A stretch of DNA of 64,000 nt, from NCBI GenBank assembly GCA_021292105.1, contig JACFYK010000028.1:124001-188000 (forward strand). Reading direction: 5' to 3'. The number at the start of each line of letters is the position of its first letter. Within the stretch, counting starts at the first letter, position 1. Positions 1 through 64,000 of this stretch are shown one piece after another. The notes beneath the pieces were generated by a model, which did no database searches, was not told the DNA's origin, and saw nothing but the letters and a program-made list of their open reading frames with translations. This DNA is from Anadara kagoshimensis. Its lineage: Eukaryota; Mollusca; Bivalvia; Arcoida; Arcidae. Both the position numbers and the translations under genes were made by a program.

Positions 1-181
1 AGGGTTAGGGTTAGGGTTAGGGTTAGGGTTAGGGTTAGGGTTAGGGTTAGGGTTAGGGTTAGGGTTAGGGTTAGGGTTAGGGTTAGGGTTAGGGTTAGGG
101 TTAGGGTTAGGGTTAGGGTTAGGGTTAGGGTTAGGGTTAGGGTTAGGGTTAGGGTTAGGGTTAGGGTTAGGGTTAGGGTTA
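1..181 (+). repeat. Telomeric (TTAGGG)n array, window-edge fragment
   Basis: Uninterrupted TTAGGG repeats run from the first base to the TTA just before the A1 unit. The array is cut by the window edge, so its true length is unknown. The G-rich strand is the + strand, which is the wrong orientation for a left chromosome end, so this is an interstitial array seen in part. The exit phase (TTA followed by TGG) is the same as at the start of every other A unit. Confidence 0.97.
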
Positions 182-189
182 TGGTTGTG

Positions 190-430
190 TCTTGTTTGCA
201 ACTTAATCGGTCTTGTTTGCAACTTAATTCGTCTTGTTTGCAACTTAATTCTGTCTTGTTTGCAACTTAATTATTTTTGCAACTTAATTGTGATGTTTGC
301 AACTTAATTGTGATGTTTGCAACTTAAACTGTCATGTTTGCAACTTAAACTTTAATGTTTGCAACTTAAAAAAATTCATGTTTGCAACTTAATGCGATGT
401 TTGCAACTTAAATATTCATGTTTGCAACCT
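190..430 (+). repeat. Phased TTGCAACTTAA cluster of A1
   Basis: Eleven exact copies of TTGCAACTTAA start at 196, 217, 238, 260, 277, 297, 317, 338, 359, 382 and 401, and a twelfth decayed copy (TTGCAACCT) starts at 422. Start-to-start spacing is 17-23 bp and averages 20.5 bp. The bases between copies vary (TCTTG, TGATG, TCATG), so only the 11-base core is kept. All copies share one orientation. The cluster begins within 15 bp of the telomeric array. A protein-binding array is a reasonable guess, but no function is shown. Confidence 0.93.
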
Positions 431-59457: not shown

Positions 59458-61340
59458 TGAAAAATAAATAAAAAAATACATAAATCAAATAAATAGATAG
59501 ATAACTAACCTAATCAATCAATCAATCGGTATATAAACAAATATCAAAACGTTTAAAGATTGATAATCACTGTTCACTATATCTCTTACCATGTAATATG
59601 TTTTATGTTTTTTGATTGTTGTATTGTGTATTTTGGTAATACAGGGATAATGTTCTTAAGTCTGGTGTTATTACCGAGTCTGCAAGAATCAAATTAAGTA
59701 AATTACAGTATTGTAGAATGAAGATTTGTGTTGTTAAAATACTAACCACTACAGCCTCATTTCTGCAACTTATATCACCCAAATTAAGTTGCAAACAGGA
59801 TGTATTAGGGGTTAGATTTGAAATGACTTAACTTTGCATGATTTGATGATTTTCCAGATACATGTAAATATGATTCGGTTGAAGTATTCAGTAATAGAAA
59901 AAAAATCATTATGTCATGACTATTTAACAGAAAATATCTAACCACGGATTTTATCATGTTTACATCTTAATCTTAGAATATGTTGCAAAAATGACTATTC
60001 CAGGGTTAATATTTTACTTTGGTTTTATACCTTAATATACATCTATTTCATGTTAATATTGTTTGTACGACAAAATCTATTACAGATGTAAATTAAAATC
60101 GTTTCTTACCTATGAAAATAAATATATTTGCTAACCCTATGATTGCCTTTTTTGCAACATAATTTGAATTAAGTTGCAATAATGAAGGCCTTGTGGTTAG
60201 TTTTTTTTATCCAACATCTTTCACTAAGCAATGAATAAATGAATCGATAACAAAATAAATGATTCAATCAATCAATAAATCAATAATCAATCCAAAAAAA
60301 ATCAATCATTAATAAAAAATTAATAAATGAAAATAAAGGAGTAATAATGGAAAACTCATACATGAATCAATAATCAAAAAACCCATAAATCAGTCAATCA
60401 ATGAATAAATAAATAAAAAAAATACATAAATCAAATAAATAGATAGATAACTAACCCTAATCAATCAATCAATCGGTATATAAACAAATATCAAAACGTT
60501 TAGAGATTGATAATCACTGTTCACTATATCTCTTACCATGTAATATGTTTTATGTTTTTGATTGTTGTATTGTGTATTTTGGTAATACAGGGATAATGTT
60601 CTTAAGTCTGGTGTTATTACCGAGTCTGCAAGAATCAAATTAAGTAAATTACAGTATTGTAGAATGAAGATTTGTGTTGTTAAAATACTAACCACTACAG
60701 CCTCATTTCTGCAACTTATATCACCCAAATTAAGTTGCAAACAGGATGTATTAGGGGTTAGATTTGAAATGACTTAACTTTGCATGATTTGATGATTTTC
60801 CAGATACATGTAAATATGATTCGGTTATAGTATTCGGTAATAGAAAAAAAATCATTATGTCATGACTATTTAACAGAAAATATCTAACCACGGATTTTAT
60901 CATGTTTACATCTTAATCTTAGAATATGTTGCAAAAATGACTATTCCAGGGTTAATATTTTACTTTGGTTTTATACCTTAATATACATCTATTTCATGTT
61001 AATATTGTTTGTACGAAAAAATCTATTACAGATGTAAATTAAAATCGTTTCTTACCTATGAAAATAAATATATATTTGCTAACCCTATGATTGCCCTTTT
61101 TGCAACATAATTTGAATTAAGTTGCAATAATCAAGGCCTTGTGGTTAGATTTTTTTTATCCAACATCTTTCACTAAGCAATGAATAAATGAATAGATAAC
61201 AAAATAAATGATTCAATCAATCAATAAATCAATAATCAATCCAAAAAAATCAATCATTAATAAAAAATTAATAATGAAAATAAAGGAGTAATAATGGAAA
61301 ACTCATACATGAATCAATAAATCAAACAACCCATAAATCA
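59458..61340 (+). repeat. A4 tandem pair (module P copies 2 and 3)
   Basis: The second copy starts at about 60402. The period is about 946 bp. A one-T loss near 60556 lengthens the minus-strand frame in the second copy to 91 codons, again showing that the frame is not maintained. Confidence 0.9.
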
Positions 61341-63425
61341 ATCAATCAATCAATTAATCAATCAATCAATCAATAATCAATCAATCAATTAAATCCATCA
61401 ATATATGAATCAATCAGACAATTGATAATTTAATCAGCGAATGATTCAATTAATACATCAATCAATAAACCAACTAATAAATCAATAAATCAGTAAATCA
61501 ATCAATAAAACAATTAGTTAAACAAATTAAATCCTTTGATCAATCAATCAGACAATCTTTAATTCAACCAACCCATAAATCAATGAATCAATAGATAATC
61601 AAATAAATAAATAATAAATAAATAAATAAATAAATAAATAAATAAAAATAAATAAATAAATCAATCAATCAATCAATCAATCAACCAATAAATCAATCAA
61701 TAACTATGCAATCAGTCAATCAATCAATCAATATATAATTAAATAAATAAATAATAAATAAATGAATCAATCAATCAATCATTCAATCAACCAACCCATT
61801 AATCAATCAATCAATCAATCAATTAATCAACCACACATATAACAATCAATCAATCAATCAATTCACTTATCAATCAATCAATAATCATCCAATCAGTCAA
61901 TCAATCAGTCAATCAATCAATACATCAATCAATCAATCAATCAACCAGTCACTCCACAATAATCAATCAATCAATCAAGCAATCAGTCAATCAGCAAATC
62001 AATCAGCAAATCAATCAATCGATACATCAATCTATAAATCAATTAGACAATCAATCAATCAACCAATCAGTCAATCAGAAAAAAATCAATAGATCAATCT
62101 GCCAATCAATCCCTATCGACGAATCAATCAATAAATCTATCAGCAAATAGATTAATCACTTAATGAATCAAATCAAACATTCAATCAATCAATCAATTAA
62201 CCTATCAATCAATTAATCAATCAACTAGCGAATAACTCAATAAATCAATCAAAAAAACCAATCAATCAATTGGTCAATCAGGAAATTTATCAATCAATCA
62301 ATCAATCAATCAATCAATCAATCAATCAATCGGTATATAAACAAATAATTAAAATGAAATTAGTCAAAAAAGAATGGAAAATAAGAATAATAAATCAATA
62401 AATAAATAAATAAATAAATAAATAAATAAATAAATAAATAAATAAATAAATAAATAAATAAAACAATCAATCAATCAATCAATTCACTTATCAATCAATC
62501 AATAATCATCCAATCAGTCAATCAATCAGTCAATCAATCAATACATCAATCAATCAATCAATCAACCAGTCACTCAACAATAATCAATCAATCAACCAAT
62601 CAGTCAATCAGCAAATCAATCAGCAAATCAGTCAATCGATACATCAATCTATAAATCAATTAGACAATCAATCAATCAACCAATCAGTCAATCAGAAAAA
62701 AATCAATCGATCAATCAGCCAATCAATCCCTATCGACGAATCGATCAATAAATCTATCAGCAAATAGATTAATCACTTAATGAATCAAATCAAACATTCA
62801 ATCAATCAATCAATTACCCTATCAATCAATTAATCAATCAACTAGCGAATAACTCAATAAATCAATCAAAAAAAACCAATCAATCAATTGGTCAATCAGG
62901 AAATTTATCAATCAATCAATCAATCAATCAATCAATCAATCAATCAATCAATCAATCGATCAATCAATCGGTATATAAACAAATAAGTCAAAAAAGAATG
63001 GAAAATAAGTATAATAAATCAATCAATACATCAATAAATAAATAAATAAATAAATAAATCAATCAATCAATCAATCAATCAATCAATCAATCAATCGGTA
63101 TATAAACAAATAATTAAAATGAAATAAGTCACAGAAGAATGGAAAATAAGTATAATAAATCAATAAATACATTAATAAATCAATAAATATATAGAATAAG
63201 ACCTAAAAACGAAGAATTGAAATAAATCAGTAACAAATTAAATAGAATTAGGTGAAAGATTAATTGAAAAACGAGTGAATGAATAAAAAAAATGAACAAA
63301 TCAATCAATAAATCAATAAATATATCAATAAATATATCAATAGATATCTAGAATGAGACCCAAATAATAAAGAATTGAAAAAAACAAGTATAAATCAATA
63401 AATCCATAATCAATCAATCAAATAA
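61185..63425 (+). repeat. A4 expanded (AATC)n/(AAAT)n satellite, tract 2
   Basis: About 2.2 kb. A pure (AAAT)n run at about 62396-62460 separates two copies of a block containing TTCACTTATCAATC, GTCACTC and TATCGACGAATC. The duplicated block has different limits from the one in A3. Confidence 0.9.
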
Positions 63426-64000
63426 CAAGGTATTTTAATTTTCGTTAAAGAATTTCTCTAGGTGATATGTTCTTAATTAGGTTGCAAACATGACATTGTC
63501 GGGGTTAAGATTTTAATTGTCTATCCGAAGTTAATGGGACAACGTAATTAGGCTACAATGTAGAGTACTATACATGCTTTTTAGAAAAAACATAATTTTC
63601 TTTTATAACTGGCTTTTTGCCATATAACTCTAGCTTAACCTAAGGTCTACCCCTTTATGTATATTAAGTTGCAAAAATGACATGGAATTGAGAGCTAACC
63701 CTAAGCCTATCAAAAAGGTTATTCTGTAATAACTTTTATTCTTAATTATAGTATAACTGATATGTTGCTTAGAAACAAAAAGTATTCTGCGATAATTTAA
63801 AATCAAACATATAACCCTAGGCTATGAATCTTTTTTATGATTAAGTTGCAAAAATGAAAGGCAATGGTTAGATGTTTTATAACTCTCCAAAGGCAAAATC
63901 TAAATATTTTTTAAATTTTATTATAGTGTATAATATGTTGTTGATATATATATAAACTTAGGTTTGATAATCCAACTTTACAATATATTGCTAGCCTAAA
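63426..64000. other. A4 right region, incomplete
   Basis: Beginning of the A right region (composite motif at 63473-63506), cut at GCTAGCCTAAA. It shares C at 63757 with A2 and A3. No gene is seen. Confidence 0.75.

What the first reader, a model, noticed from the sequence alone, without database searches (positions are those of the whole stretch)
1..64000. Two families of gene-free subtelomeric units, each punctuated by TTAGGG arrays, in the order A-B-A-B-B-B-A-A
Seen: eight units in one orientation, with every junction at fixed bases (left end after TTA or TTAGG(G), right end CGCTAA then TTAGGG). Known: tandem Y' elements of Saccharomyces carry telomeric repeats at their junctions, and TALT blocks in telomerase-independent survivors are amplified with telomeric repeats. 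Inference: this is a comparable recombination-amplified chromosome-end system, but with two interspersed families and no protein gene. It could mark a lineage that maintains or buffers its ends by unit amplification. An irregular order such as ABABBBAA is expected from unequal exchange through the shared telomeric arrays.
Basis: partly seen in the sequence, partly recalled or inferred. Interest (0 to 1): 0.85.

Follow-up and report, generated by a model that had tools for sequence, protein, structure and literature searches.

The report
Telomere-punctuated gene-free chromosome-end repeat units
Many chromosome ends in this genome are built from several related kinds of gene-free 5-10 kb DNA units, separated by telomere repeats and studded with one recurring short motif, a well-organised relative of the subtelomeric repeats known in yeast, worms and humans.

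Summary
The window contains eight same-direction units, order A-B-A-B-B-B-A-A (last one cut), separated by TTAGGG arrays of 50-2089 bp with fixed ends and no recognisable gene.

The reading needs widening. The window lies on a 217-kb unplaced scaffold of a 1.1-Gb genome with 19 large contigs. Exact searches for three right-end types find 153 junctions; 90 of 114 on large contigs lie within 750 kb of an end (at 16 of 38 ends), 70 of those 90 pointing at it. There are at least six right-end types, and the five families compared (A, B, C, D, F) are distantly homologous. Units share a plan: a proximal cluster of ~20-21 bp boxes, the same box through the body (about 160-190 bp spacing in A, B, C), and a right end NTAA|TTAGGG. 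A telomere-like CTAACC lies exactly 15 bp upstream of 18 of 98 distinct boxes (0.14 expected).

TERT-like exons are present, so telomerase-independent maintenance is not indicated. Most likely these are noncoding subtelomeric units spread by recombination through shared TTAGGG arrays; the box may bind a telomere-related protein, but selection on it is not shown. New variant of a known kind.

The parts
187..9369 (+). unit U1, family A (9183 bp)
   Evidence: boundaries and comparison
11459..16945 (+). unit U2, family B (5487 bp)
17074..26283 (+). unit U3, family A (9210 bp)
26945..32440 (+). unit U4, family B (5496 bp)
33984..39448 (+). unit U5, family B (5465 bp)
39514..45001 (+). unit U6, family B (5488 bp)
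45052..55032 (+). unit U7, family A (9981 bp)
55083..64000 (+). unit U8, family A, cut by the window end
   Evidence: its end is in L011 at 825
1..186 (+). TTAGGG array, 29 perfect hexamers, ends TTATGGTT
9370..11458 (+). TTAGGG array, 2089 bp, interrupted
16946..17073 (+). TTAGGG array, 128 bp
26284..26944 (+). TTAGGG array, 661 bp
32441..33983 (+). TTAGGG array, 1543 bp
39449..39513 (+). TTAGGG array, 65 bp
45002..45051 (+). TTAGGG array, 50 bp
55033..55082 (+). TTAGGG array, 50 bp
188..428 (+). left-end cluster of about 12 head-to-tail ~21-bp boxes (TTTGCAACTTAA) in A
   Evidence: same at 17075-17315, 45053-45293, 55084-55324
11477..11670 (+). left-end cluster of about 10 ~21-bp boxes in B
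   Evidence: same region at 26956-27158, 33995-34197, 39533-39726
1585..1650 (.). example of a body dyad in U1: CTAACC, box (+), box (-), GGTTAG
9330..9369 (+). right-end signature of A: reverse box, CTAACC, ...CGCTAA immediately before TTAGGG
16906..16945 (+). right-end signature of B: reverse box, CTAACC, ...CGCTAA immediately before TTAGGG

Best explanation
This is part of a superfamily of noncoding subtelomeric units, each delimited by TTAGGG arrays that mostly point at the chromosome end. Shown: sequence, order, fixed ends, location near many assembled ends, mostly canonical orientation, deep homology of the five families compared, shared anatomy of the units read, presence of TERT-like exons. 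Inferred: units multiply and move between ends by homologous recombination through the TTAGGG arrays (unequal exchange, break-induced copying or tip translocation), while telomerase keeps the very end. Inferred more weakly: the recurrent bipartite motif (CTAACC, 9 bp, TCATNTTTGYAACTTAA), spaced about 160-190 bp in A, B and C and clustered at 20-21 bp at the proximal end of the complete units read, is bound by a telomere-related protein and helps organise subtelomeric chromatin or pairing of ends.
For: Units in order with fixed ends. 153 junctions of three types; on large contigs 90 of 114 within 750 kb of an end (2.6% of their length), 70 of those 90 in canonical orientation; on each of seven unplaced scaffolds all units point one way, to the end where the cluster lies (39 junctions; 38 of 39 are nearer to that end, C23:94283 is not). 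Near-identity between scaffolds: A at C6 left 100.00% to U1 and U3 over 2.45 kb; over a 2.5-kb stretch B at C9 left is 99.60% to U2 and 99.76% to a C23 copy but 98.78% to U5. Box counts in whole units: A 44 vs 10.3 in shuffles, B 40 vs 5.1, C 47 vs 8.3, F 24 vs 8.4, D part 15 vs 4.0; periodic in A, B, C (0, 0 and 1 of 1000 random placements as good). CTAACC at exactly -15: 18 of 98 distinct boxes (B 6, A 5, C 4, F 2, D 1), random mean 0.14, maximum 2 in 1000. Box 16-mer 441 times in the genome vs 5 for the reversed control. TERT-like exons.
Against: No reads, chromatin or binding data. Only 16 of 38 large-contig ends show these junctions within 750 kb, and C1, C7, C10 and C11 have none of the three types, though the ends read are incomplete. 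24 of 114 junctions are interior, and 20 of 90 near ends have the opposite orientation. 10 of the 100 box places listed lie outside the unit clusters. Constraint on the box is not proven: A-B identity is higher in boxes (0.82 vs 0.72, 0 of 5000 shifts), but boxes were called by sequence, and in the wider test only 6 of 18 comparisons exceed the neutral expectation for called sites (square root of flank identity). Periodicity is not significant in F (288 of 1000) or the D part (183 of 1000).
Confidence: 0.5

Rival explanations
1. Passive subtelomeric satellite or duplicon DNA with no function: an old satellite with a ~186-bp monomer decayed, its box is a relic, and units are copied between ends only because they lie there.
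For: Box identity between families exceeds the neutral expectation for called sites in only 6 of 18 comparisons. Human subtelomeres show the same TTAGGG-at-boundary layout (PMC2323237, passages).
Against: The exact -15 spacing of CTAACC is found in five families whose shared stretches are mostly 57-75% identical; left-end box clusters recur in the complete A, B, C and F units read.
Confidence: 0.3
2. A telomere-targeted mobile element, non-autonomous, inserting into TTAGGG (Helitron-like or retroelement-like).
For: Fixed ends on both sides; right ends of A, B, D and F read CTAA|T, like a Helitron 3' end (definition recalled). Ten of the 100 listed box places and 24 of 114 junctions lie away from ends.
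Against: No frame of 100 aa or more in the one C and one F unit read and no domain in the 6 window frames tested; C, E and G end in ATAA, and A and C do not begin with TC; most junctions sit near ends.
Confidence: 0.1
3. One reading: ends are maintained or buffered mainly by unit amplification, as in telomerase-negative survivors.
For: Layout like TALT and Y' arrays: units between same-direction telomeric tracts; the same types near many ends.
Against: TERT-like exons at two places on C16; C9 begins with about 2.5 kb of telomere repeat; substitution divergence within B up to about 2% suggests amplification that is not one recent burst.
Confidence: 0.07
4. Assembly artefact: collapsed or mis-ordered subtelomeric repeats.
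For: Two of three non-canonical clusters looked at run into N gaps (C3 at 59.749 Mb in L074; C2 at 65.2359-65.2369 Mb in L001).
Against: The window has no N; units differ by substitutions and array length; many scaffolds show the same layout.
Confidence: 0.03

Closest known systems
Human subtelomeric duplicons with internal (TTAGGG)n islands (PMC2323237; passages seen)
   Same: Internal TTAGGG tracts sit at unit boundaries and are usually oriented to the telomere; duplicated blocks shared among ends; occasional inverted tracts.
   Different: Here boundaries are at fixed bases, arrays reach 2 kb (islands there up to 823 bp) and are near-perfect, units are 5-10 kb, without recognisable genes, modular, and share a recurring box.
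Tandem Y' elements of Saccharomyces cerevisiae (recalled)
   Same: Multi-kb subtelomeric units in tandem with telomeric repeats at junctions, exchanged between ends.
   Different: Y' encodes a helicase ORF; no such ORF here; at least six right-end types coexist.
TALT1/TALT2 in C. elegans telomerase-deleted survivors (PMC4595603; passages seen)
   Same: Unique block flanked by same-direction telomere-like tracts, copied to several ends.
   Different: TALT arrays arose in telomerase-deleted lines from one donor block; here TERT-like exons are present and the families are diverse and diverged.
Leishmania LCTAS (PMC8621916; passages seen)
   Same: Subtelomeric repeats next to telomeric repeats with conserved sequence blocks proposed as protein sites.
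   Different: LCTAS is about 100 bp; these are 5-10 kb with a box repeated dozens of times.

Membership tests
Subtelomeric satellite / duplicon DNA | noncoding, multi-copy, tandem or clustered near chromosome ends | tested here: met
Human-type subtelomeric duplicons | internal TTAGGG tracts at unit boundaries, usually pointing to the telomere | tested here: met
   (70 of 90 near-end junctions canonical)
Human-type subtelomeric duplicons | most duplicons also have copies at non-subtelomeric places | tested here: inconclusive
   24 of 114 junctions on large contigs are interior; one of the interior clusters read (C3) ends at a scaffold gap, one (C19) does not
Y' element | telomeric repeats at junctions of tandem units | tested here: met
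Y' element | encodes a helicase ORF (recalled) | tested here: not met
   longest non-repeat frames about 100 aa, 6 of 33 tested without Pfam match
TALT array | unit flanked by same-direction telomeric tracts and copied to several ends | tested here: met
TALT array | arises in the absence of telomerase | tested here: inconclusive
   TERT-like exons found, which speaks against it; activity not testable
Helitron (non-autonomous) | 5' TC and 3' CTRR ends (recalled) | tested here: not met
   A and C do not start with TC; C, E and G end in ATAA
Telomeric retrotransposon (HeT-A, SART/TRAS, Terminon type; recalled) | reverse transcriptase or gag ORF | tested here: not met
   no such frame in the window nor a frame of 100 aa in the C and F units read; autonomous copies elsewhere not excluded
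CENP-B-box-like satellite organisation (recalled) | a short protein-bound box at nucleosome-scale spacing | tested here: inconclusive
   spacing shown in A, B, C, not in F and D; binding not testable

The most novel reading that the evidence does not exclude
The units are an ancient superfamily of selfish or domesticated noncoding chromosome-end elements whose replicating 'core' is a bipartite protein site (half telomere repeat, half TTTGYAACTTAA box), phased at nucleosome distance and capped by a proximal 20-21 bp-phased cluster; a telomere-binding protein that recognises it draws the ends together, keeps the arrays recombining, and leaves a natural recombination-ready reserve for end repair in a telomerase-positive organism.
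Probability: 0.25. Interest if true: 0.8.

Novelty: new variant of a known kind. Interest (0 to 1): 0.55.

Why it matters
Subtelomeres are often incomplete in assemblies, so how TTAGGG-bounded units evolve is known mainly from a few model systems (my general knowledge). Here 16 assembled ends and seven loose scaffolds of one genome show the same modular design at base resolution, with several families of different age and a motif that half resembles the telomere repeat. That makes it possible to test whether subtelomeric units carry binding sites that drive their own spread or organise end chromatin.

Tried and rejected
Two independent families: rejected, A and B share blocks at 64-80%, and both align to C, best in inverted orientation at about 64%. 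Scallop satellite Cf303 as a match: passages of PMC5904364 give its FISH location, no sequence to compare. Helitron and retroelement origin: see membership test. Constraint on the box: one search looked positive, but one search shows that calling boxes by sequence can account for most of it, so I do not claim selection. The species was not identified: the COX1 family search met a busy server seven times. Nineteen large contigs and 1.1 Gb would suit a bivalve; that is recall and guess, not a result. Paper searches: no title or abstract start listed described this system, which does not show that it is unpublished; the Terminon papers were seen in the listing only.

Weak points of my own counts. 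The 750-kb limit was chosen after seeing the positions (at 100 kb: 56 junctions, 50 canonical; 150 kb: 63, 55; 250 kb: 70, 59). The A/B pattern also fits inverted A left ends: at least one of its 60 (C2:65628322, L004) and probably C4:59257844, judged from the boxes beside it. The 20 junctions were picked by hand, 19 preceded by A and one by C, so the 26 of 27 ending in TAA is partly by choice. In one search one of 28 windows (A9040) was mis-centred and is not a box. Place listings are capped at the first places (100); their totals are whole. Box spacing came out at 184-186 bp with one caller and 162-180 bp with another, whose random null used a coarser grid of periods than the observed value. 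A second candidate TERT exon in L029 was first searched in the wrong frame; in the right frame it also found no solved relative at E up to 10.
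Full report
What is in the window. Eight units in one orientation are separated by TTAGGG arrays. Two kinds alternate: A (9.2-10 kb) and B (5.5 kb), in the order A-B-A-B-B-B-A-A, the last A cut by the window end. All seven right ends in the window read CGCTAA and pass directly into TTAGGG; the four A units start after TTAGGGTTATGGTT, the four B units after TTAGG or TTAGGG. 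Arrays are 50 to 2089 bp and 84-98% perfect. There is no Rfam hit, no tRNA, and no domain above cut-off in the 6 of 33 listed frames that I tested. A carries long, variable AATC-type microsatellites.

Where it lies. The window is G000:C23:124001-188000, on an unplaced 216,893-bp scaffold of a genome with 19 large contigs (1.11 Gb) and 17 small ones. The array goes on at both sides: a B unit just before the window, further B units after U8, and an A unit that runs into the scaffold end. Exact searches for three right-end types found 87, 35 and 31 junctions; 60 of the 87 fit the A/B pattern, which also fits inverted A left ends, as at C2:65628322. Of the 153, 114 are on large contigs: 90 within 750 kb of an end and 24 interior; 39 are on seven small scaffolds. 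The 90 lie at 16 of 38 ends; C1, C7, C10 and C11 have none of the three types. Near the ends 70 of 90 point toward the end; the 20 others are on C2, C9, C14, C16, C18 and C19. On each small scaffold all units point one way, to the end where the cluster lies (38 of 39 junctions are nearer to that end). Three non-canonical clusters were looked at: those on C3 (59.7 Mb) and C2 (65.24 Mb) run into N gaps, so wrong joins are plausible; the one on C19 (16.1 Mb) continues into other sequence without a gap and may be a true internal telomere.

More than two families. Junctions fetched at 20 hand-picked places show further right-end types, called C, D, E, F and G here; G may be an inverted left end. 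One complete C unit and one complete F unit were read. Sensitive comparison links the five families for which more than an end was held (A, B, C, F and a 3.9-kb part of D): best alignments A-B 64-75%, A-C and B-C about 64% in inverted orientation, C-F 58-60%, D-F 63%, and a 97% block of 0.67 kb shared by C and D. E and G were not compared beyond their ends. So these are relatives of one old superfamily, with mosaic exchange.

Common plan. (i) The proximal end, just after the TTAGGG array, is a cluster of head-to-tail boxes at about 20-21 bp: TTTGCAACTTAA in A and B, TTTGTAACTTAA-like in C and F. (ii) The box recurs in both orientations through the body. Counts for whole units are 44, 40, 47, 24 and 15 in A, B, C, F and the D part, against 10.3, 5.1, 8.3, 8.4 and 4.0 in Markov shuffles; 128 of the 170 lie outside the left clusters. 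Spacing is periodic in A, B and C at 180, 170 and 162 bp (0, 0 and 1 of 1000 random placements as good) and not significant in F and D (288 and 183 of 1000); another caller gave 186 and 184 bp for A and B. (iii) A telomere-like CTAACC lies exactly 15 bp upstream of the box in 35 of 128 body boxes, and in 18 of 98 after removing near-identical contexts (B 6, A 5, C 4, F 2, D 1); random positions give 0.14 on average, at most 2 in 1000 trials. Two such sites often face each other, so that CTAACC and GGTTAG bracket a dyad. (iv) The right end usually has a reverse box and CTAACC before NTAA|TTAGGG: among 27 ends (7 of the window, 20 fetched), 26 end in TAA, 23 have GTTRCAW and 17 have CTAACC within 75 bp. 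In E the end contains CTAACCCTAACCC, an inverted telomere stretch directly before TTAGGG. Genome-wide the 16-mer CATKTTTGCAACTTAA occurs 441 times against 5 for the reversed control. Of the 100 places listed (C2 to C5 only), 90 lie in or beside unit clusters and 10 do not: two on C2 (7.6 and 8.4 Mb), four on C3 (39.2-39.3 Mb), four on C4 (31.3 Mb and three at 59.17 Mb, 86 kb before the first C4 junction).

Exchange between ends. The first 2.45 kb of A is 100.00% identical, counting substitutions, between U1, U3, a distal C23 copy and the left end of C6. Over the 2.5 kb of B read at the left end of C9, identity is 99.60% to U2, 99.64% to U4, 99.76% to another C23 copy and 98.78% to U5, so copies on another contig can be as close as those within the array. 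C23 is unplaced, so it could be an end of C6 or of C9; at most one of the two comparisons can then be within one chromosome.

Telomerase. The telomerase RNA-binding domain model rings twice on C16, at 39.72 and 40.31 Mb, over its cut-off. The exon at the first place matches solved telomerase reverse transcriptases, best 7qxa at E 2.5e-7 over 33 residues (that this entry is human is recalled). Downstream in L029 a frame looks to me like the next reverse-transcriptase motif (by eye, from recall), but it found no solved relative at E up to 10 (one search had used a wrong frame). So a TERT-like gene is present, in two places or as an unmerged duplicate; intactness and expression are unknown.

Mechanism. 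Most likely, units are copied and shuffled by recombination through the TTAGGG arrays, which point the same way at most ends; this explains irregular order, variable array length, fixed unit ends, orientation and between-end identity. That step is inferred from sequence. The bipartite box suggests a telomere-related DNA-binding protein, with the proximal cluster phased on one face of the helix and body sites at nucleosome-scale distance. That is a hypothesis: the A-B comparison shows higher identity in boxes (0.82 versus 0.72, 0 of 5000 shifts), but since boxes were recognised by sequence, the fair comparison is the square root of flank identity, and only 6 of 18 comparisons exceed it. The strongest hint of constraint is the fixed 15-bp offset across families.

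Comparison with known systems. In human subtelomeres internal TTAGGG islands lie at duplicon boundaries and usually point to the telomere (PMC2323237, passages); this is the closest animal parallel that I found. TALT blocks in C. elegans survivors have the same flanked layout but arose in telomerase-deleted lines (PMC4595603, passages). Leishmania LCTAS combine subtelomeric repeats with conserved blocks (PMC8621916, passages). Y' elements, recalled, have telomeric junctions but encode a helicase. I file the finding as a new variant of subtelomeric repeat organisation, not as a member of Y' or TALT.

Noticed in passing
L043 (C5:73218690-73219020) and L004 (C2:65626833-65629856): A units in inverted orientation whose left end runs into TTAGGG; in L043 this makes the palindrome CCCTAATTAGGG, in L004 the junction reads CGCTAATTAGGG, as at an A right end.
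   Followed up: partly
L075 (C19:16077300-16087200): A ~1.3-kb CCCTAA array at the distal side of an interior unit cluster joins sequence without a match to the five families and without a gap; possible old chromosome end now internal.
   Followed up: partly
L028 and L029 (C16:39.72 and 40.31 Mb): TERT RNA-binding-domain exon present twice, about 588 kb apart, in the same direction: duplicate gene or unmerged haplotype.
   Followed up: partly
C11:43993158 and 43999010; L051: TTAGGG arrays preceded by C; the one read (L051) follows CGC and not TAA, without the box or CTAACC in the last 75 bp: another type of array.
   Followed up: no
L012 (C2:65648000-65657999), after 670: Directly beyond the array lies sequence without a match to A or B that may encode a protein (an open frame beginning MDLSPAKKDF in my reading).
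   Followed up: no
window 3347-4640, 6462-7641, 20237-21533, 23355-24403, 48210-49518, 51338-53142, 58173-59494, 61312-63096: AATC-type degenerate microsatellites of about 1-1.8 kb inside A units; the second block of each unit varies most in length between copies.
   Followed up: no
L013 and L016: A 5.4-kb stretch near the right end of C2 is 98.5% identical, inverted, to the left end of C3.
   Followed up: no
C3:39185381-39268340, C2:7564891, C2:8359486, C4:31323552, C4:59170984-59171215: Ten of the 100 listed box 16-mers lie away from the unit clusters; three on C4 are about 107-109 bp apart, which may be another satellite carrying the box.
   Followed up: no
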